Position numbers and translations under genes: made by a program. Shown piece by piece: positions 797 through 61,590 of a stretch of DNA of 64,000 nucleotides. Within the stretch, counting starts at the first letter, position 1. Every line of letters begins with the position of its first letter. This DNA comes from Planctomycetales bacterium 10988 (GTDB lineage: Bacteria; Planctomycetota; Planctomycetia; Pirellulales; Pb10988): assembly GCA_009664345.1 (NCBI GenBank), contig CP043547.1, positions 3,376,709-3,440,708 on the forward strand, in the 5' to 3' direction. Below the pieces are notes generated by a model. That model was not told where the DNA came from. It did no database searches and saw only the letters and a list, made by a program, of their open reading frames with translations.

Positions 797-871
797 TAAG
801 AGCCACGGTCAAACGCTTTCATAAAAAGGCAAACACCTGGAAAAGGTGACCCTCCGTTAACGTTTGGCTAT
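797..871 (-). repeat. Dispersed palindromic element, copy A
   Basis: This lies in the 361-bp gap between the Nudix gene and the M16 gene. Read on the minus strand it contains CACCT, a TTTTC-type loop and AGGTG (plus-strand 834-848), an outer CAAACG/CGTTTG pair (861-866 with 810-815), and the conserved tail GACCGTGGCTCTTA. The other copies have a GGTCAAAA/TTTTGACC outer pair, so here the outer stem differs in sequence but still pairs. It points toward the M16 gene. The rest of the gap shows nothing else recognisable. Confidence 0.7.
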
Positions 872-1005
872 AAGCTCCAAAATCCTCCTAACTCCTACAA
901 TCCTTATTGTGGCATAATCCCCCCCTTCGGCAAAGTGGCGTCCTTGGGGAAATTCTCAGCAGGCAGATAGAGGAAATCGGAAGTGCGAACCTGGGGCGTT
1001 CGGGT

Positions 1006-25490: not shown

Positions 25491-25680
25491 AGCTTTTTTT
25501 CTAAAACATTTAGATCTATCCGCGTTTGCTTTGCGTTATGCAATCTATAACGGAAACCAAGAGCCGGTGGTTAAAACCCGACAGAAACGGAAAAACCTTG
25601 GTAAGCGTGAATCTCAAGTAACCTTTGGCCACAAACTCAAAACAATCTCTTCTCATTTTCGATAGCGAAAGGCAAGTTCC

Positions 25681-39320: not shown

Positions 39321-42300
39321 TTATTGAATTCCTAGGCCGCTGAAAAGTTTATCGATTTTTTCCGCTTCACTATAAAATTCATCGACCTCTTCCCACCAGG
39401 ATTTTTTCTGTTCCGAATGCTCGGGGAGGGTGTCTTCGGGAGCTTCTTCCGATTGAACCTCTGCGAAGAAAGGCTGTGAGAATGGGCTTGGGAGAGAATC
39501 GGTATTCGTGAGCCCTCCTGCGATGAAAAGTCCACTTGTTTCCGAGGAAGGTCCAGAGTAGAAGTTTGCCAAGTCCGCTAAATCCACGCCGCTAAACGCT
39601 CGGGTGTGCGGGCCTCCCGTGGAACCGGGAACCGTGAGGATATCGAAGAACTCATCCTGATTGATATCGGCGGAAGCGACGCGGACCCCGCCGGTGAAAG
39701 AGGGGTCATAAGCATAAAAGTTCTGCAAGAGCGAAGCATCCGCTGAACTGAAAACTTTCACATGCGGCCCGCCGCCTGCTCCGGGAGAGGTGATGATGTC
39801 ATCAAGGCCATCGTTATCGACATCGCCCGCTGCCACAAAAATCCCGGTGAGAACATTCGAGGCATAGGCATAAAAATTCGTGGCGGCTCCGGTCATTTGC
39901 TCGCCGGTCATTCCACTAAAGACGCGAACGTGCGGCCCGCCGCCTGCTCCGGGTCCGGTGATGATGTCCGCAAAGCCATCGCCATCGATATCCCCGGCGG
40001 CAACGCGAACCCCGCCGGTGAAGCTGGGATCATAGGCGTAAAACTCGGTGATTATCTCTCCGGTGAGACCGTCGAAGACTTTCACATGGGGGCCACCTCC
40101 GGCATCGGCAGCGGTGATGATGTCGTCGCGGCCATCATTATTCACATCGCCGACAGCAATATAGACTCCGCCCGTGAAACTGGGATCATAGGCATAAAAA
40201 TCCCGGATTCCGCCAAAAGTTAAATCTCCCGGGGTGGAGCTATCAAAGACCGAAACTCTCGGACCACCCCCTGGTCCGGCGGCGGTGACGATGTCGAGGA
40301 TGCCATCCCCATTGATATCCCCGGTCGCCACACGAATGCCTCCGGTGAAGGCTTTCGTATAAGGATAGAAGCTTGCCAACTCGGTGCCTGATTCATCAAA
40401 CATTCGTACGAATCCGGCAGTACCCGCATCGGTCCCGGTGACGATCAGCGGGGTTTTTGGTTCCAAATCGACCAAGAAAAGCTCTTTGCCATAGTCGGCA
40501 GTTCGTGCGGCAAAGAAGAGCGTTCCATTGACGTTCGCGAGATACTCTGGGTCCGCACCATAGGTGGCTTGCTCAAGTTCATAGGCAAGAACCGTCCCTG
40601 CGGAAGTTCCATCCGTTTTCCAGATATCCTCAATATCCTCACTTGATTCAGCGACGAAGTAGAGCGTTCCGTTTACTTCCTCAAAATGGCTGGGATAGGA
40701 ACCCTGGCTCCCCTCGTGGATATCTTTAATAAGCATCGTTCCTGCCGAGGTCCCGTTGCTCATCCACAATTCGCTGCCATTGATGCCGTCAGTCGCTGCA
40801 AAAAAGAGGGTGCCGTTAAAATTGTAGAAATGAGAGCTGCTGGAACTGTTGGCCCCTGGGCGGATGTCCGCAACGAGCATCGTTCCGGCAGAGGTTCCAT
40901 CGCTTATCCACAGCTCTTGGCCATAGGAACCTTCATTCGCTCTGAAAAAGAGGGTGCCATTCACATTGGTCAGTCGAGAGGGAGAAGAGTCGTCGGCCCC
41001 TGGGCGGATATCCACGACAAGCATGGTTCCCGCGGACGTTCCATCGCTCATCCATAATTCTGAGCCATGGCAACCATCATTTGCTTCGAAAAAGAGGGTA
41101 CCATTCACATTGACAAGGTTATCTGGCCAGGAATTTTCCGAATCTGGGTGGATGTCTGCAACGAGCATGGTCCCCGCGGACGTTCCATTGCTCATCCATA
41201 GCTCTTGGCCATAGGAACCGTCATTTGCTTTAAAAAAGAGGGTTCCATTTACATTGACGAAGCTACTTGGATTCGAGGATTCAGTGCCGGCATTAATGTC
41301 CTTAACTAACTGTGTCCCTGCCGAAGTTCCATCACTTTTCCAAAGCTCGTAGCCATAGCTTTCTAAGTGAGCCGAGAAGAACAGCGTCCCGTTGACATTG
41401 GTCAGATGGTAAGTGTAGCGATTGTCGGTCGTGTTAAAGGCTCGGATCATTTCCGTTCCGGCAGTCGTCCCATCGGATTTCCACAGGGTATATCCATAGA
41501 GACCGGTATCTGCCACGAAGAACAATGTCCCGTTGACATTGGTGAGTTCATAAGGGTTGGAATCGGCTGTACCATCCGCGATATCGGCCAAGAGGAAAGT
41601 GCCTGCGGAGGTTCCATTAGAGATACGTGGTTCATGTCCAACCACGCCATCGGAAGCGCCGAAAAAAAGTTGCCCATTGAAATTCGTGAGCGACGTGATA
41701 TTCGTCTTCGCGGAAGGACCATCAATCAGCTCAAAGGCAAGGATGGTTCCCGCGGAGGTTCCATCACTCATCCATAATTCTTCCCCGTATTCTTGGGTCG
41801 TTGCTGAGAAGTAGAGTGTTCCGTTGACGTTGATGAGTTCGTTCGGGTAGGAACCATCGGTTCCCGGTTCAAGGTCTTTGACCAACACCGTTCCGGCCGA
41901 CGTTCCATTGGTCATCCAGAGTTCTGAGCCATAGCTGCCCTCCCTCGCTCTGAAGAACAGCGTGCCATTGAGATTGACAAATTCGTCAGGGGATGAGGAG
42001 TCGCTACCGCTTTGAATGTCTTTGACCAGCACTGTTCCGGCAGAGGTCCCGTTACTCATCCAGAGTTCATTTCCGTAGCCCCCAACAAATGCCGTAAAAA
42101 AGAGGGTCCCGTTGACATTCGTTGGTTCGGAAATACTGGTGGAACTTAGACCACTATTCATGTCTTTCACCAGTTGCGTCCCTGCGTAGGTTCCATCACT
42201 TTTCCAAAGTTCAAATCCATAGCCTTGAGAATAAGCACGGAAGAACAGCGTCCCACTGACATTGGTAAGTGCATTCGGGGAACTACCGCTACTACTGCCT

Positions 42301-43022
42301 CCTGATCGAATATCGCGTACAAGTTCGGTTCCCGCGGAAGTTCCGTTGCTCTTCCACAGTTCAGAGCCATAAACTCCGTCATTGGCAGAGAAAAAAAGCG
42401 TCCCACTTAGATTGGTAAGATAGTTCAGAGAGGAGGAACCTGTCCCGCTACGAATATCCTTAACGAGCTGTGTGCCGGCCGACGTTCCGTCCGTCATCCA
42501 GAGTTCGTTGCCATAGGTATCCTCTTGTGCGGTAAAATAAAGGGTGCCATGGAAATTCACGAAGTTGGATGGGAAGGCGTTCTCCGCACCGGGGTCGAGG
42601 TCTTTTACCAGCTGCGTCCCGGCGGTGGAACCATCCGTTTTCCACAGTTCCGCACCATAAGTATCGTCGTATGCACTAAAAAAGAGTGTCCCGTTCACGT
42701 TCAACAATTCAGGAGCGATCGGTCCGTAAGCGTATGGGCTGAGGTCTTTGATGAATTGTGTCCCCACGGTGGTCCCGTCCGTCATCCATAACGATCTGCC
42801 GTTTTCGTCATTGATGGCTGTAAAGTACAGGGTGGCATTGACTTCAGTCGCGCTATCGATACCAGAGCCCTGGCCGGTCGGATTGATATCAATTAAAACC
42901 GGGTCCGCGGAAAGAAGCTGGCGGGGTTCAAGTTGTTCAAGATTGAGGGAGGTATCTCGCAGCTCTTTGAGGTGAGATTGCTTTTGCTGTTCGGAAGAAG
43001 TGGAAAAGAAAGAACGCCACAT
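39321..43022 (-). CDS. Giant surface protein: LEPR motif, 16-17 ELW/GTSAGT repeats, five FG-GAP-like calcium repeats
   Basis: 1233 residues. Residues about 31-40 carry LEQLEPRQLLSAD, the planctomycete surface-protein motif that follows a charged leader and is thought to mark exported cell-envelope proteins. Then 16 full and one partial copies of a ~47-residue unit follow (NGTLFFxAxxxxxGxELWxSxGTSAGTxLVxDI); the ninth has HEPRISNGT in place of ELW. After residue about 880, five FG-GAP/VCBS-like repeats with calcium loops (GDINGDGILD, GDVNNDGRDD, GDIDGDGFAD, GDVDNDGLDD, ADINQDEFFD), the last poorer in Asp. The tail is acidic with WWEEVDEFYSEAEKI. It is likely an adhesin or cell-surface structural protein. 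GAGGATTCGCTTT precedes the ATG. Confidence 0.88.
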   Translation of the reverse strand: MWRSFFSTSSEQQKQSHLKELRDTSLNLEQLEPRQLLSADPVLIDINPTGQGSGIDSATEVNATLYFTAINDENGRSLWMTDGTTVGTQFIKDLSPYAYGPIAPELLNVNGTLFFSAYDDTYGAELWKTDGSTAGTQLVKDLDPGAENAFPSNFVNFHGTLYFTAQEDTYGNELWMTDGTSAGTQLVKDIRSGTGSSSLNYLTNLSGTLFFSANDGVYGSELWKSNGTSAGTELVRDIRSGGSSSGSSPNALTNVSGTLFFRAYSQGYGFELWKSDGTYAGTQLVKDMNSGLSSTSISEPTNVNGTLFFTAFVGGYGNELWMSNGTSAGTVLVKDIQSGSDSSSPDEFVNLNGTLFFRAREGSYGSELWMTNGTSAGTVLVKDLEPGTDGSYPNELINVNGTLYFSATTQEYGEELWMSDGTSAGTILAFELIDGPSAKTNITSLTNFNGQLFFGASDGVVGHEPRISNGTSAGTFLLADIADGTADSNPYELTNVNGTLFFVADTGLYGYTLWKSDGTTAGTEMIRAFNTTDNRYTYHLTNVNGTLFFSAHLESYGYELWKSDGTSAGTQLVKDINAGTESSNPSSFVNVNGTLFFKANDGSYGQELWMSNGTSAGTMLVADIHPDSENSWPDNLVNVNGTLFFEANDGCHGSELWMSDGTSAGTMLVVDIRPGADDSSPSRLTNVNGTLFFRANEGSYGQELWISDGTSAGTMLVADIRPGANSSSSSHFYNFNGTLFFAATDGINGSELWMSNGTSAGTMLIKDIHEGSQGSYPSHFEEVNGTLYFVAESSEDIEDIWKTDGTSAGTVLAYELEQATYGADPEYLANVNGTLFFAARTADYGKELFLVDLEPKTPLIVTGTDAGTAGFVRMFDESGTELASFYPYTKAFTGGIRVATGDINGDGILDIVTAAGPGGGPRVSVFDSSTPGDLTFGGIRDFYAYDPSFTGGVYIAVGDVNNDGRDDIITAADAGGGPHVKVFDGLTGEIITEFYAYDPSFTGGVRVAAGDIDGDGFADIITGPGAGGGPHVRVFSGMTGEQMTGAATNFYAYASNVLTGIFVAAGDVDNDGLDDIITSPGAGGGPHVKVFSSADASLLQNFYAYDPSFTGGVRVASADINQDEFFDILTVPGSTGGPHTRAFSGVDLADLANFYSGPSSETSGLFIAGGLTNTDSLPSPFSQPFFAEVQSEEAPEDTLPEHSEQKKSWWEEVDEFYSEAEKIDKLFSGLGIQ

Positions 43023-43227: not shown

Positions 43228-45819
43228 CTACTTGGCGGAAACGTCCTGCCAATACGTTTGCGTCTTCGTGACAGTGGCATCGCCTTCTTTGTAGGTGACG
43301 GTTTGATACCCTCGGAAGATCTTAAAGAACTCCATCAGCTTTTGAACGTACTCGACTTTTTCTTCCGTAGGAAGTTCTTGCCAAGTTTCCATGGCCTCTT
43401 CAAGCTTTCTTTCAAATTCTTCTGATTGCTCCTCGGCAAACTCTTCGAAGGACTTTGCTTCTTCAAATTCCATCGTTTCGTCACCTTCTTGGGGCAACCC
43501 GACGATTGGTTCCTCGACTGGGTTAACCTTGATTTTTTTGGTTTCCTCGTCGACTTCCGTCTCGATATCGATGCCGATTTTCTCTTCAACCTCTACATCT
43601 TCTTCGGCAGGGTCCGCCTCTTCGAGGTCTTTCCACTCTTTCTCTAAAGCCTTTTGATGGGCCTCTTGCTCTTTCTGCATTTCACGCTTGCGAGCTTCAT
43701 ACTCAAAGTAGGTGCGGGAAGCTCCGACAAAAACCGGCGTGTAGGTATCGATCAGTTGTTCCCAATCCATGACAAAGAAGCGATAGGCGGGGTCTTCGGC
43801 GGCGTCGGGTAACATACCGGGCATTTCCAAAGATCGTGGCGTCATAAGCCGTTGGATTTGTCTCTCCGTCACCCCGGCGACAGCGAATTCTTCGCCAATT
43901 CCCAGGAAAAGACCATAGTCTTCCAAGGGCGGGAGACCACTTTTCTTCCCGAGATCATACCAATAAAGGGTACCGTAATCGGTTTCTTTCGAATTGGGGA
44001 CCGGGATTTGATAGTCGGGGACAATCTCTGGAGACTTCTGATGCGTCGCGGCAATCACATCGTTGAACAATTCGTAATAGCTGGCGAGCGCGGTCTGATA
44101 GAGGTCCGCGTCTTCGAGTTGACCGATGAGGCCCGCTTCGACGGTTTCCACCGGGGGAATGCCAGGAAGTGGCACCGGAACCGGTTCGCCGCGAGTAAAG
44201 GCAACCGCTCGTTCTCGTCCCAAGGAAGGCAAATATTCTTTCATCGTGATACGGTGAAAGCGACGCACGATAGGATAGATTTTCTCGGTCGCGCTATCAA
44301 ATTCTTTCTGCTCTCGGGGCGAGAGTTTCATCTTGGGAAGAATATAGTCTTGGAAATAGCCGTATCCAATCTTCCCCCAATACACAACGCGGGGATAAGG
44401 ATTGATCGCCGGTTCCAACCAAGCGGAAGCAATCAAAGGTTGCCCATCAAGGTGTTCCCGAATGGCCAAGACTTCCGGCTCGGATCGCCCTGGATATTTT
44501 TCATAGAAATACGTGAAAGTCGCATACCCTTCTTCATTCCGATAGCAATATCCGACATTCGCCCCTAACTCCGGCCAGGCCGAAGCGATTTCATTACAAA
44601 GTCGTGTTAAATCTTTACGTGCTCTTTCCGCATCTTCTTCGTCGAATTCCGACCAATCAATCCCTTTTGGAAAGTTTCTAATTTGTTGCTTTGTAAAAGT
44701 GCTGCCTTGAAGAAAATCTTGAGAAACATAATTCATGGAATTCAACGATTTATCAAAGTTTTCAAGAATAGGTTTCAACTCTTCTTTATCTTTTAAAAGC
44801 GGACCCGTTCCAAGCGTTTTTAAAGGTTCTTGAGAACCGCTGAAACTTATTAATAGATAATTGCGAAAGAGGCCAAAGTGAAAGTAAAGATACTTTTCTT
44901 TAATGATCCTGTTTGCTAGACGGCGTTGTTTTGGAGTTAAATCTTTAAACTCTTTTTTTAATTCTTTCGAGTTGAAAATTTTCTCTACATCAAACTTGCA
45001 TTCGTAATAGGTTCCTTCGCCCAAAGTGACTTTTTGAAAGGGAGAGAGTGCCCCTTTTGTTTCTTTTTCAATCTCTTCATTTACTTTGTCGAAGAAGGAT
45101 TGCTTTTCGATGGCATCAAGCAGCCGCTTGGCTTTTTGTATATCCTTAATTTGGAACCCAAGCAAAACACTCGGTATTTTTAGCTGCTTGGCATTTCGAG
45201 AATAAACTTCAATCACTTGATTGTTGATTTTCTCTTCAAATTCGTCCGAATCAAGCTCGTCTAAATCAAATTCTTCCAGGTCTTCGTCATCTTCGATCTC
45301 CTCCTCTTCCTTTTCTTCCTCGAATAATTTTTCAAGGCCAAATTCTAGGATGGTACGATACTGTGCGATGTTTACCTTGTTGTTGACTTGTAGAGTTTTT
45401 GATAGCTCCGGACCTAGATAAAGAAAGATTTCTTCCGAGATCATTTCTTTACCAAGTTGCTTCAAAGCCTTTCCTTGTTTGCTCTGAAAAAACTTGACCA
45501 TTTTCCTAAAATTTTCCCCTTCTTTGCCTTCCTTTTCCATTGCTTCTTGGAAGCCTTTTTTAAAAGCTTGGGAAAATTCTTCTTTGTATAATTCTACAAT
45601 TTTGCTGGAAGCGATTTGTTTCCAAGCATTGCTATCAAACAGAATTTTCCATTCTTCGGCAATGTTTAAATTCGCGCCATAGACGGCGGCATCGGCGGGG
45701 ATAAAGTCGAGAGAACTGTTCGTTTCTTCCGCTGAAAGGGGAGGCGATGTCAGAAAGAGTGTCAAACTCAGTATCCATAGGATTGTCCCAGGGTGGAATC
45801 GTCGATTTCTATTTTTCAT
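43228..45819 (-). CDS. Large secreted protein, unrecognised
   Basis: 863 residues with a signal peptide (TILWILSLTLFLTSPPLSAEE). The opening LDFIPADAAVYGANLNIAEEW resembles secreted planctomycete proteins with a lipocalin- or DUF3352-like start, but I cannot assign a family. There are two acidic, helical stretches: residues about 170-200 (Glu/Asp-rich, EEEKEEEEIEDDEDLEEFDL) and about 725-810 (EKEWKDLEEADPAEEDVEVEEKI). Between them is a mixed alpha/beta part with WLEPAINPYPRVVYWGKIGYGYF. AAGGGGAACAAAG precedes the ATG. The half encoded by 44600-45819 is much more AT-rich than the rest. A terminator follows at 43160-43185. Confidence 0.75.
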   Translation of the reverse strand: MKNRNRRFHPGTILWILSLTLFLTSPPLSAEETNSSLDFIPADAAVYGANLNIAEEWKILFDSNAWKQIASSKIVELYKEEFSQAFKKGFQEAMEKEGKEGENFRKMVKFFQSKQGKALKQLGKEMISEEIFLYLGPELSKTLQVNNKVNIAQYRTILEFGLEKLFEEEKEEEEIEDDEDLEEFDLDELDSDEFEEKINNQVIEVYSRNAKQLKIPSVLLGFQIKDIQKAKRLLDAIEKQSFFDKVNEEIEKETKGALSPFQKVTLGEGTYYECKFDVEKIFNSKELKKEFKDLTPKQRRLANRIIKEKYLYFHFGLFRNYLLISFSGSQEPLKTLGTGPLLKDKEELKPILENFDKSLNSMNYVSQDFLQGSTFTKQQIRNFPKGIDWSEFDEEDAERARKDLTRLCNEIASAWPELGANVGYCYRNEEGYATFTYFYEKYPGRSEPEVLAIREHLDGQPLIASAWLEPAINPYPRVVYWGKIGYGYFQDYILPKMKLSPREQKEFDSATEKIYPIVRRFHRITMKEYLPSLGRERAVAFTRGEPVPVPLPGIPPVETVEAGLIGQLEDADLYQTALASYYELFNDVIAATHQKSPEIVPDYQIPVPNSKETDYGTLYWYDLGKKSGLPPLEDYGLFLGIGEEFAVAGVTERQIQRLMTPRSLEMPGMLPDAAEDPAYRFFVMDWEQLIDTYTPVFVGASRTYFEYEARKREMQKEQEAHQKALEKEWKDLEEADPAEEDVEVEEKIGIDIETEVDEETKKIKVNPVEEPIVGLPQEGDETMEFEEAKSFEEFAEEQSEEFERKLEEAMETWQELPTEEKVEYVQKLMEFFKIFRGYQTVTYKEGDATVTKTQTYWQDVSAK

Positions 45820-45900
45820 CTTTGTTCCCCTTGCAATGAAATAAGTGTTCGATCGTAGATTCTTGTCGAGAAGGAAGCGACCGAAGTTTTTTAGAGTATG

Positions 45901-45974
45901 TGGTCAAAAGTAAATTAGGAGTCACCTTTTTCAGGTGTTTACCTGTTTCTGAATGGTTTTGACCATAGCTTTTA
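45901..45974 (+). repeat. Dispersed palindromic element, copy B
   Basis: Perfect 9-bp outer arms TGGTCAAAA (45901-45909) and TTTTGACCA (45957-45965), inner hairpin CACCT-5-AGGTG (45923-45937), an overlapping alternative hairpin AGGT-4-ACCT (45933-45944), and the tail AGCTTTTAG. It is the best-preserved copy and lies in the 644-bp gap between the 863-residue protein gene and htrA, pointing to htrA. Confidence 0.75.
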
Positions 45975-45980
45975 GTGCTC

Positions 45981-46033
45981 GGTCACTTTCTCCAGGTATT
46001 ACAGTGTTTTTGGGTTTTGACCATTGGCGTTTC
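45981..46033 (+). repeat. Dispersed palindromic element, degenerate copy C
   Basis: GGTCACTTTCTCCAGGTATT at 45981-46000 and TTTTGACCATTGGCGTTT at 46015-46032 match the centre and right part of copy B in order. The left outer arm is missing. It lies directly behind copy B, so the two are tandem. Confidence 0.55.
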
Positions 46034-46342
46034 GAAGGAAGTTCGGCTTGCCGACCGCACGCTTTTTCTGGTTCCCATTCAATCGTTTCCTGTGTTCAAG
46101 TTGTAGCTAACTGGCTTCCTCTTGCAATGGTCGATCGCAGAAGAATCGAAAAAATTACTGTAATCGCTACCTTTTAAATGGGTTCGCGATTCTCGATGGA
46201 AGCTCGTTGTACAAAGGATCGCTCTCAAGCTCATTGGATGTATTTTTCCTTCTTGGCAAGGCGTACTATAATGTCAATCAGTTCCGGATTCGCTATAGTG
46301 GAAATGAAGAACCGAGCGGCTGGAAAGCGTTTTTCGGCGAGC

Positions 46343-46415
46343 GGTCAAAAGTAAAGTGAGCTGAACTTTTTCAGGTGTTTACCTACTTTCAAAAGATTTG
46401 ACCACTGGCTCTTAG
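46343..46415 (+). repeat. Dispersed palindromic element, copy D, directly before htrA
   Basis: Outer arms GGTCAAA (46343-46349) and TTTGACC (46397-46403). The inner part keeps AGGT-4-ACCT (46373-46384) but the CACCT arm is AACTT, so only the alternative hairpin can form. The tail is ACTGGCTCTTAG. It ends 49 nt before the htrA ATG, so it must overlap the promoter or the 5' leader. Confidence 0.7.
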
Positions 46416-46463: not shown

Positions 46464-47642
46464 ATGACACCCCCTCCTGGATCAGCTACGCCGCAACTCC
46501 CGAACGTCCTGGCTCGTTTGATGGGAATCGGCTTTATCCTCATGCTCATTTTTGGGTTTTTGTTGGCCCTCTTCATGAAAGGCTTGCATGAGGTCAATGA
46601 CCCGGATGCCTGGATGCCGGAACTGAATCCCGAGGCGACTTTGCGAGAAGTTGCCGATCGTGGAGACCTACGGAATGACGAAATTGCGACGATTCAAGTC
46701 TTTCGCGAAGCGGCACCTTCGGTGGTTTATATTGAAACGGGAAAGATTCAGCTGCGATTCAATGTCGACCCGATCGAGATTCCCCAAGGAACGGGAAGTG
46801 GCTTTGTATGGAGTGAAGATGGCCTGATCATTACGAACTATCATGTGATCGAAAACGCCGACACTGCGAAGGTTTATCTGGCGGATCAAAGTGCCCGTTC
46901 GGCCAAGCTGGTGGGAGCGGCTCCGCATAAAGACTTGGCAGTGCTGAAGATCGATGTCAATCCTGATGAACCATTGCGGCCGATTCCTGTAGGGGTCTCC
47001 GCGGAACTGCAAGTCGGTCAAACTGTGCTTGCCATTGGGAATCCTTTTGGTTTGGATCACACGTTGACCACCGGAGTGATTAGTGGTTTGGATCGCGAAA
47101 TCCAATCCGTCACCGGGCGGCCGATCGGAGGCGTCATTCAAACGGATGCGGCCATTAATCCTGGGAATTCCGGCGGTCCTTTGCTCGATAGTGCCGGGCG
47201 TTTGATCGGGATCAATACGGCGATTAAGTCCAATTCCGGGCAGTATGCGGGGATTGGATTCGCGGTTCCGGTCGATCTTGTCAATAATATTGTGACGGAA
47301 CTGGTTCGAGAAGGGCGGGTTCGCCGACCGGGTCTCGGAGTCACGATTGTCGATGATCGGATCGTCAATCAATTGCGGCAAACGGGGCAAATTCAAGAAG
47401 AGGGCGTGCTCATTTACTCCATCGGTGCCGATTCGGCAGCGTTCAAAGCAGGCCTCAAACAGACCCTTAGTCGCGAAGAGTTAGGGGACTTAATCGTTGC
47501 CATTGATGGACAACCGATCAAAAATTCCATTGATCTCTTCCGTGCCTTGGACCAGCATTCGGTAGGCGAAACGGTTGAAGTGACCGTGATTCGAAATGGC
47601 AAGGAACTCACCCTGGAGGTGACCTTACAACCGTTAGAGTAA
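46464..47642 (+). CDS. HtrA/DegP-type serine protease with PDZ domain
   Basis: 392 residues. An N-terminal membrane helix (LARLMGIGFILMLIFGFLLALFM, about 15-37) anchors it on the periplasmic side. The trypsin-like domain has a full triad: His127 in TNYHVI, Asp157 in HKDLAVL, Ser236 in NPGNSGGPL. A single PDZ domain at about 295-385 (GVLIYSIGADSAAFKAG, then GDLIVAIDGQPIKN) binds substrate C-termini. One PDZ and one helix is the DegS/HhoA-type layout rather than DegP. It serves envelope protein quality control. Three copies of the palindromic element lie in the upstream gap. The ATG follows GAGAGA. Confidence 0.94.
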   Translation: MTPPPGSATPQLPNVLARLMGIGFILMLIFGFLLALFMKGLHEVNDPDAWMPELNPEATLREVADRGDLRNDEIATIQVFREAAPSVVYIETGKIQLRFNVDPIEIPQGTGSGFVWSEDGLIITNYHVIENADTAKVYLADQSARSAKLVGAAPHKDLAVLKIDVNPDEPLRPIPVGVSAELQVGQTVLAIGNPFGLDHTLTTGVISGLDREIQSVTGRPIGGVIQTDAAINPGNSGGPLLDSAGRLIGINTAIKSNSGQYAGIGFAVPVDLVNNIVTELVREGRVRRPGLGVTIVDDRIVNQLRQTGQIQEEGVLIYSIGADSAAFKAGLKQTLSREELGDLIVAIDGQPIKNSIDLFRALDQHSVGETVEVTVIRNGKELTLEVTLQPLE

Positions 47643-61505: not shown

Positions 61506-61590
61506 TTAGAGTTTGTGGTCAAAAGTAAGCTGAGAGTCACTTTTTCCAAGTGCCTAACAGCGTTCGTCAGGTTCTGACCGCTAGCTTTTC
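61506..61590 (+). repeat. Dispersed palindromic element, copy E
   Basis: Begins TTAGAGTTTGTGGTCAAAAG, matching copy B's left flank as well as its arms. Outer arm TGGTCA (61516-61521) pairs less well with TGACCG (61575-61580). Inner hairpin CACTT-5-AAGTG (61539-61553): both sides changed together relative to CACCT/AGGTG in copy B. Tail CTAGCTTTTC. It lies about 105 nt before the barrel-protein ATG, same orientation. The rest of the 323-bp gap shows nothing. Confidence 0.7.

What the first reader, a model, noticed from the sequence alone, without database searches (positions are those of the whole stretch)
45901..46415. Unrecognised palindromic element family, three copies stacked upstream of htrA
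Seen: 9-bp perfect outer arms (TGGTCAAAA/TTTTGACCA), an inner CACCT/AGGTG hairpin, an overlapping AGGT/ACCT hairpin and a conserved tail GACC-x-GGCTYTTA. Copy D ends 49 nt before the htrA start. Two mutually exclusive inner hairpins are a pattern of RNA switches; perfect outer arms also fit a short mobile palindrome (REP/MITE type). I do not recognise it as a named family. If it acts as RNA or operator, HtrA points to envelope-stress control (inference).
Basis: partly seen in the sequence, partly recalled or inferred. Interest (0 to 1): 0.72.

Follow-up and report, generated by a model that had tools for sequence, protein, structure and literature searches.

The report
IS5-derived MITE family in one planctomycete
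The palindromes upstream of htrA are three of roughly 150 copies of a tiny non-coding transposon (a MITE) that a resident IS5-family insertion sequence most likely moved around this genome, so they are ordinary mobile DNA and not a switch controlling the stress protease.

Summary
In detail: a ~79-bp palindromic element lies at all five stated places, plus an unlisted sixth (25561-25638, minus). The genome holds about 150 copies (148 scored, 73 on + and 75 on -). None turned up in 391 other genomes of the phylum.

It is a miniature inverted-repeat transposable element (MITE). The ends are 16-bp terminal inverted repeats, GAG(TTT/CCA)GTGGTCAAAA. A 3-bp target-site duplication of TNA type is demonstrable: 63 of 124 copies match exactly (34 expected, shuffle maximum 48), and of 64 flanking position pairs only the middle TNA base is correlated. 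The same genome carries at least 12 full-length ~890-bp IS5-family insertion sequences with matching ends, the same CTWAG target and a two-frame transposase.

A switch or envelope-stress control is not supported: no orientation bias (43 v 39), no strand bias in stem changes, no significant covariation of the 'alternative' hairpin, unrelated neighbours, no recurrence beside htrA-like genes. The CACCT/AGGTG inner hairpin does covary, and convergent gene pairs are avoided; both are unexplained.

Verdict: new member of a known kind.

The parts
800..877 (-). MITE copy A, full length, decayed terminal repeats
   Evidence: CM R1 58.3 bits; flanks TTG/TTA
25561..25638 (-).
   Evidence: CM R1 43.2 bits; flanks TTT/TTG
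45894..45971 (+). MITE copy B, full length
   Evidence: CM R1 91.2 bits
45891..45893 (.). left target-site duplication TTA of copy B
   Evidence: sequence; exact TTA/TTA pair
45972..45974 (.). right target-site duplication TTA of copy B
   Evidence: sequence; exact TTA/TTA pair
45894..45909 (+). left terminal inverted repeat of copy B, GAGTATGTGGTCAAAA
   Evidence: sequence; shared with the ends of the resident IS5-family element
45957..45971 (+). right terminal inverted repeat of copy B, TTTTGACCATAGCTT
   Evidence: sequence
45923..45937 (+). inner hairpin of copy B, CACCT-TTTTC-AGGTG
   Evidence: inner pairs covary: rank 1 and rank 13 of 2850 column pairs, p = 0.0009
45981..46033 (+). MITE copy C, 3'-half fragment abutting copy B
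   Evidence: sequence alignment; weak BLAST match 28 bits
46335..46411 (+). MITE copy D, nearest to htrA, decayed left end
   Evidence: CM R1 48.4 bits; flanks TTT/TTA
61509..61587 (+). MITE copy E, full length
   Evidence: CM R1 75.8 bits; flanks TTA/TTC
46464..47642 (+). context only: htrA-type serine protease (Trypsin_2 + PDZ), divergent from the gene at 43228-45819 minus; not part of the element
   Evidence: Pfam; NCBIfam TIGR02037 301 bits, below its 416-bit cut-off

Best explanation
It is a non-autonomous DNA transposon (MITE) of about 79 bp with 16-bp imperfect terminal inverted repeats and no coding capacity. A resident IS5-family insertion sequence (about 890 bp, IS1031/IS427-like, transposase split over two frames) most likely recognises these ends in trans, moves the element into CTWAG-like sites and duplicates 3 bp (TNA). 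Copies have accumulated over a long time, mostly between genes, and decay after insertion. The three stacked copies upstream of htrA are separate insertions, one of them now a fragment, in a ~640-bp divergent intergenic region. Shown: family, copy number, ends, target duplication, ends shared with the IS. Inferred: mobilisation in trans by that IS, and neutrality of most copies.
For: 148 scored copies, 73 on + and 75 on -; 10 copies in 400 kb of evenly spaced sample, which extrapolates to about 166. Exact 3-bp duplication in 63 of 124 copies against 34.2 expected (maximum 48 in 10,000 shuffles); of 64 flank position pairs only -2/+2, the middle TNA base, is correlated; rare duplications TAG/TAG, TTC/TTC, TAT/TAT and TTG/TTG also occur. 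At least 12 full-length IS copies end in GAGCCTGTGGTCARAAC (with minor variants) and sit at the same CTWAG target, 6 of 12 with an exact TNA duplication. Its transposase halves match NF033580 (IS5 family) at positions 3-114 and 114-256 of 258 and Pfam DUF4096 + DDE_Tnp_1. Related IS in other genomes of the order have GAR...CAAAAC ends with TTA/TAA duplications. 145 of 148 copies are intergenic. Not found in 391 other genomes of the phylum.
Against: No empty site could be shown, because no genome of the same family is held. The element shares only the terminal ~16 bp with the IS, not its subterminal sequence. Half of the copies lack an exact duplication, as decay would produce. The inner hairpin covaries, which end recognition alone does not require.
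Confidence: 0.94

Rival explanations
1. A cis-acting RNA switch or operator that controls htrA and other envelope-stress genes through two mutually exclusive hairpins.
For: Consensus-like copies fold better than shuffled sequence, z -3.2 to -4.9. Inner-hairpin columns covary. Convergent gene pairs are avoided (6 copies against about 22 expected), so copies tend to lie 5' of genes.
Against: No orientation bias in same-direction contexts (43 v 39). One-step stem changes split about evenly between G-U and A-C (113 v 89 outer, excluding the two ancestral T-G columns; 65 v 62; 48 v 54). The alternative hairpin has no significant covariation. No second htrA-like gene in the fetched neighbourhoods of copies and mixed neighbour functions. 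Absent from other genomes of the order. Target duplications.
Confidence: 0.02
2. A REP/REPIN-type palindrome moved by a RAYT (Y1 tyrosine) transposase.
For: High copy number, intergenic, palindromic.
Against: 79 bp rather than 20-40 bp, paired terminal repeats with a 3-bp target duplication, and ends matching those of a DDE-type IS5 element.
Confidence: 0.01
3. A MITE, but with some copies co-opted as promoters, RNA-processing sites or insulators, possibly including the htrA cluster.
For: Each end carries an outward TTGACC hexamer (sequence). Convergent intergenic regions hold far fewer copies than expected. Correia elements in Neisseria carry promoters and lie upstream of genes (PMC10969869).
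Against: No enrichment of a -10-like hexamer at promoter spacing outside the ends. No orientation preference.
Confidence: 0.1

Closest known systems
ISLrh and the IS1031 subgroup of the IS5 family (PMC12016507), for the partner IS
   Same: 887-891 bp against 857 bp, ends GAGCCTGTGGTCARAAC against GAACCTGTCTAGTATCT, two overlapping transposase frames, TNA target and 3-bp duplication.
   Different: Different species; the group assignment (IS1031 or IS427) was not settled by a tree here, and IS427-group members also carry two frames (PMC3281130). The MITE itself has no transposase.
Bacterial MITEs: Correia/NEMIS, RUP, ERIC, Nezha (PMC3733652, PMC10969869)
   Same: 70-300 bp, 15-30 bp terminal repeats, no coding capacity, intergenic, strong foldback structure, resident IS with the same ends.
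   Different: Unrelated sequence, IS5-type TNA duplication, found so far in one genome only.
REP / GTAG- and CGTC-tagged repeats (PMC3733652)
   Same: Palindromic, many copies, extragenic; that class is reported from planctomycetes.
   Different: REPs are 20-40 bp and tied to IS200/IS605-type transposases; this element has two terminal repeats and a target duplication.

Membership tests
MITE | 70-300 bp, 15-30 bp terminal inverted repeats | tested here: met
   79 bp; 16-bp imperfect repeats with GTGGTCAAAA perfect in the consensus
MITE | no coding capacity | tested here: met
   79-bp element; 145 of 148 copies lie outside predicted genes
MITE | target-site duplication | tested here: met
   63/124 exact 3-bp, 34.2 expected; only -2/+2 correlated
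MITE | shares ends with an autonomous element in the genome | tested here: met
   at least 12 full-length IS with GAGCCTGTGGTCARAAC ends
MITE | empty site in a relative | not testable with these tools
   no genome of the same family is held (one search lists only same-order genomes)
MITE | actual transposition in trans | not testable with these tools
   needs an assay
IS5 family (partner IS) | IS5-type DDE transposase | tested here: met
   NF033580 halves 3-114 and 114-256 of 258, each below the 110-bit whole-protein cut-off because the gene is split; PF13340 and PF01609 above cut-off
IS1031 subgroup (partner IS) | TNA target with 3-bp duplication, GAG/GAA-type ends | tested here: met
   6 of 12 IS copies with an exact TNA duplication
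IS1031 versus IS427 subgroup | placement of the transposase in a subgroup tree | not tested
   no reference set of subgroup transposases at hand
REP/RAYT | 20-40 bp palindrome without a terminal-repeat pair and target duplication | tested here: not met
   79 bp with two terminal repeats and 3-bp duplications
Riboswitch / structured cis-RNA | covariation supporting the proposed alternative helices | tested here: not met
   alternative helix p = 0.08; 150 of 500 shuffles reach its covariation score
Riboswitch / structured cis-RNA | fixed orientation relative to the regulated gene | tested here: not met
   43 v 39 in same-direction contexts
Rfam families | match to a described RNA family | tested here: not met
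   no match at E up to 1

The most novel reading that the evidence does not exclude
The inner hairpin is under selection independently of the ends, for example as a folded DNA intermediate in transposition or as a processing site in transcripts, so this MITE lineage has been selected for its foldback core while the core sequence changed between subfamilies.
Probability: 0.12. Interest if true: 0.45.

Novelty: new member of a known kind. Interest (0 to 1): 0.2.

Why it matters
It explains about 150 scattered palindromes in this genome and pairs them with a resident IS that is the likely mover, so these repeats need not be mistaken for regulatory RNAs or operators. Beyond that it is a routine annotation result; the covarying core and the avoidance of convergent gene pairs are modest open points.

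Tried and rejected
RNA-switch reading: tested by covariation, strand bias and orientation, not supported. Portable-promoter reading: no -10 enrichment outside the ends. Search for an empty site by comparing flanks of copies with each other: the only paralogous flank pair followed (408242/5087225 with 5179775) carries a copy at both places and is not informative. MITE inserted inside an IS copy at 4083166: the IS similarity ends about 100 bp before the element, so it is not an insertion into the IS. The two weak hits in other genomes (E 0.055 and 0.089) were treated as chance.

Full report
Observation. The palindromes are in the sequence as described. A covariance model built from 29 copies places them at 800-877 minus, 45894-45971 plus, 46335-46411 plus and 61509-61587 plus, and adds one at 25561-25638 minus. 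The fifth listed copy, 45981-46033, is a fragment of the right half. The matches are far beyond chance (E about 1e-8 to 1e-21 in 584 kb).

Family. In the window's own 6.65-Mb genome the model scores 148 copies above 25 bits, 73 on + and 75 on -. The consensus is GAGTTTGTGGTCAAAAGTAAATTGGGAGTCACCTTTTCCAGGTGTTTACCTGNTTCTGAANGGTTTTGACCACTGGCTC, with terminal repeats GAGTTTGTGGTCAAAA and GAGCCAGTGGTCAAAA. Core sequences fall into subfamilies (for example CACTT...AAGTG instead of CACCT...AGGTG), and further copies keep the ends with very different or deleted cores. No match at E up to 1e-4 was found in 391 other genomes of the phylum, and no exact paired-end pattern in 116 other genomes of the order. 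Rfam has nothing similar.

Transposition. The element is flanked by a 3-bp TNA duplication. Among 124 copies scoring above 40 bits, 63 have identical triplets on both sides; shuffling gives 34.2 on average and never more than 48 in 10,000 trials. Of all 64 pairs of flanking positions only left -2 and right +2, the middle base of the triplet, are correlated. Duplications other than the usual TTA or TAA also occur (TAG, TTC, TAT, TTG). Copy B in the window has TTA on both sides.

Partner. A transposase-family search showed many IS5-like genes in the genome. A search for the element's ends showed that one group of these has the same ends. At least twelve copies of 887-891 bp begin and end with GAGCCTGTGGTCARAAC or a close variant and lie in the same CTWAG context, six with an exact TNA duplication. 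In the eight copies read, the transposase is split over two overlapping frames; the two halves together cover NCBIfam NF033580, IS5 family transposase, and match Pfam DUF4096 and DDE_Tnp_1. ISLrh of the IS1031 subgroup has the same plan: 857 bp, GAACCTGT... ends, two frames, TNA target, 3-bp repeat (PMC12016507). Related elements in other genomes of the order carry GAR...CAAAAC ends next to TTA or TAA duplications. That the IS moves the short element in trans is inferred from the shared ends and target.

Not a switch. 145 of 148 copies are intergenic in a genome that is 83-84% coding by the same script. In same-direction contexts the element points with the genes 43 times and against them 39 times. 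Single changes in paired columns produce G-U and A-C about equally often once the two ancestral T-G columns are set aside, so there is no sign of selection on one folded strand. The second, overlapping hairpin shows no significant covariation (p = 0.08). The genes next to sampled copies are unrelated (amino-acid permease, citrate synthase, aminotransferase, response regulator, sigma factor, prolipoprotein transferase and others). Apart from the window's own htrA, htrA-like genes were found only in two of the random background samples (L205, L208), not in any locus fetched around a copy. No -10-like hexamer is enriched outside the ends.

What remains open. The CACCT/AGGTG inner hairpin does covary: its pairs include rank 1 and rank 13 of 2850 column pairs, p = 0.0009, while slid controls show nothing; the terminal stem is weaker, p = 0.010. 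Rank 1 is the C-G to T-A change that separates subfamilies, so it may reflect few events, and repair templated by the opposite arm of a palindrome could also produce it without selection (inference). Copies are rare between convergent genes, 6 against about 22 expected from intergenic length or site counts, p about 0.0005 to 0.001; disruption of terminators is one possible reason, untested.

Verdict. A new MITE family of the IS5 group, found in one genome: a new member of a known kind, of modest interest.

Noticed in passing
own genome, L031:1565-1690, L129:2560-2700, L145:4380-4510, L094:2800-2930, L024:1560-1685 and others: A second dispersed repeat of about 95-105 bp with ends GCTCTGACAAAAC / GCTCGGACAAAAC, sometimes directly beside a copy of the 79-bp element; probably a second MITE family. 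Its ends were not found in the IS5-like loci checked.
   Followed up: partly
own genome, G000:C1 408242-408320 and 5087225-5087303 (L015, L013): Two copies of the element with near-identical flanks of at least 400 bp on each side (99-100%), so a duplicated segment.
   Followed up: no
own genome, G000:C1 3235376-3235533 and 6358072-6358951: Other stacked copies of the element (tandem pair; cluster of three), so the htrA cluster is not unique.
   Followed up: partly
window 39321-43022 minus: 1233-aa protein with 16 ELWxxDGT repeats (NCBIfam TIGR04534), two genes from htrA.
   Followed up: no
148 copies, own genome: Strong under-representation of the element between convergent genes (6 observed, about 22 expected); cause unknown.
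   Followed up: partly
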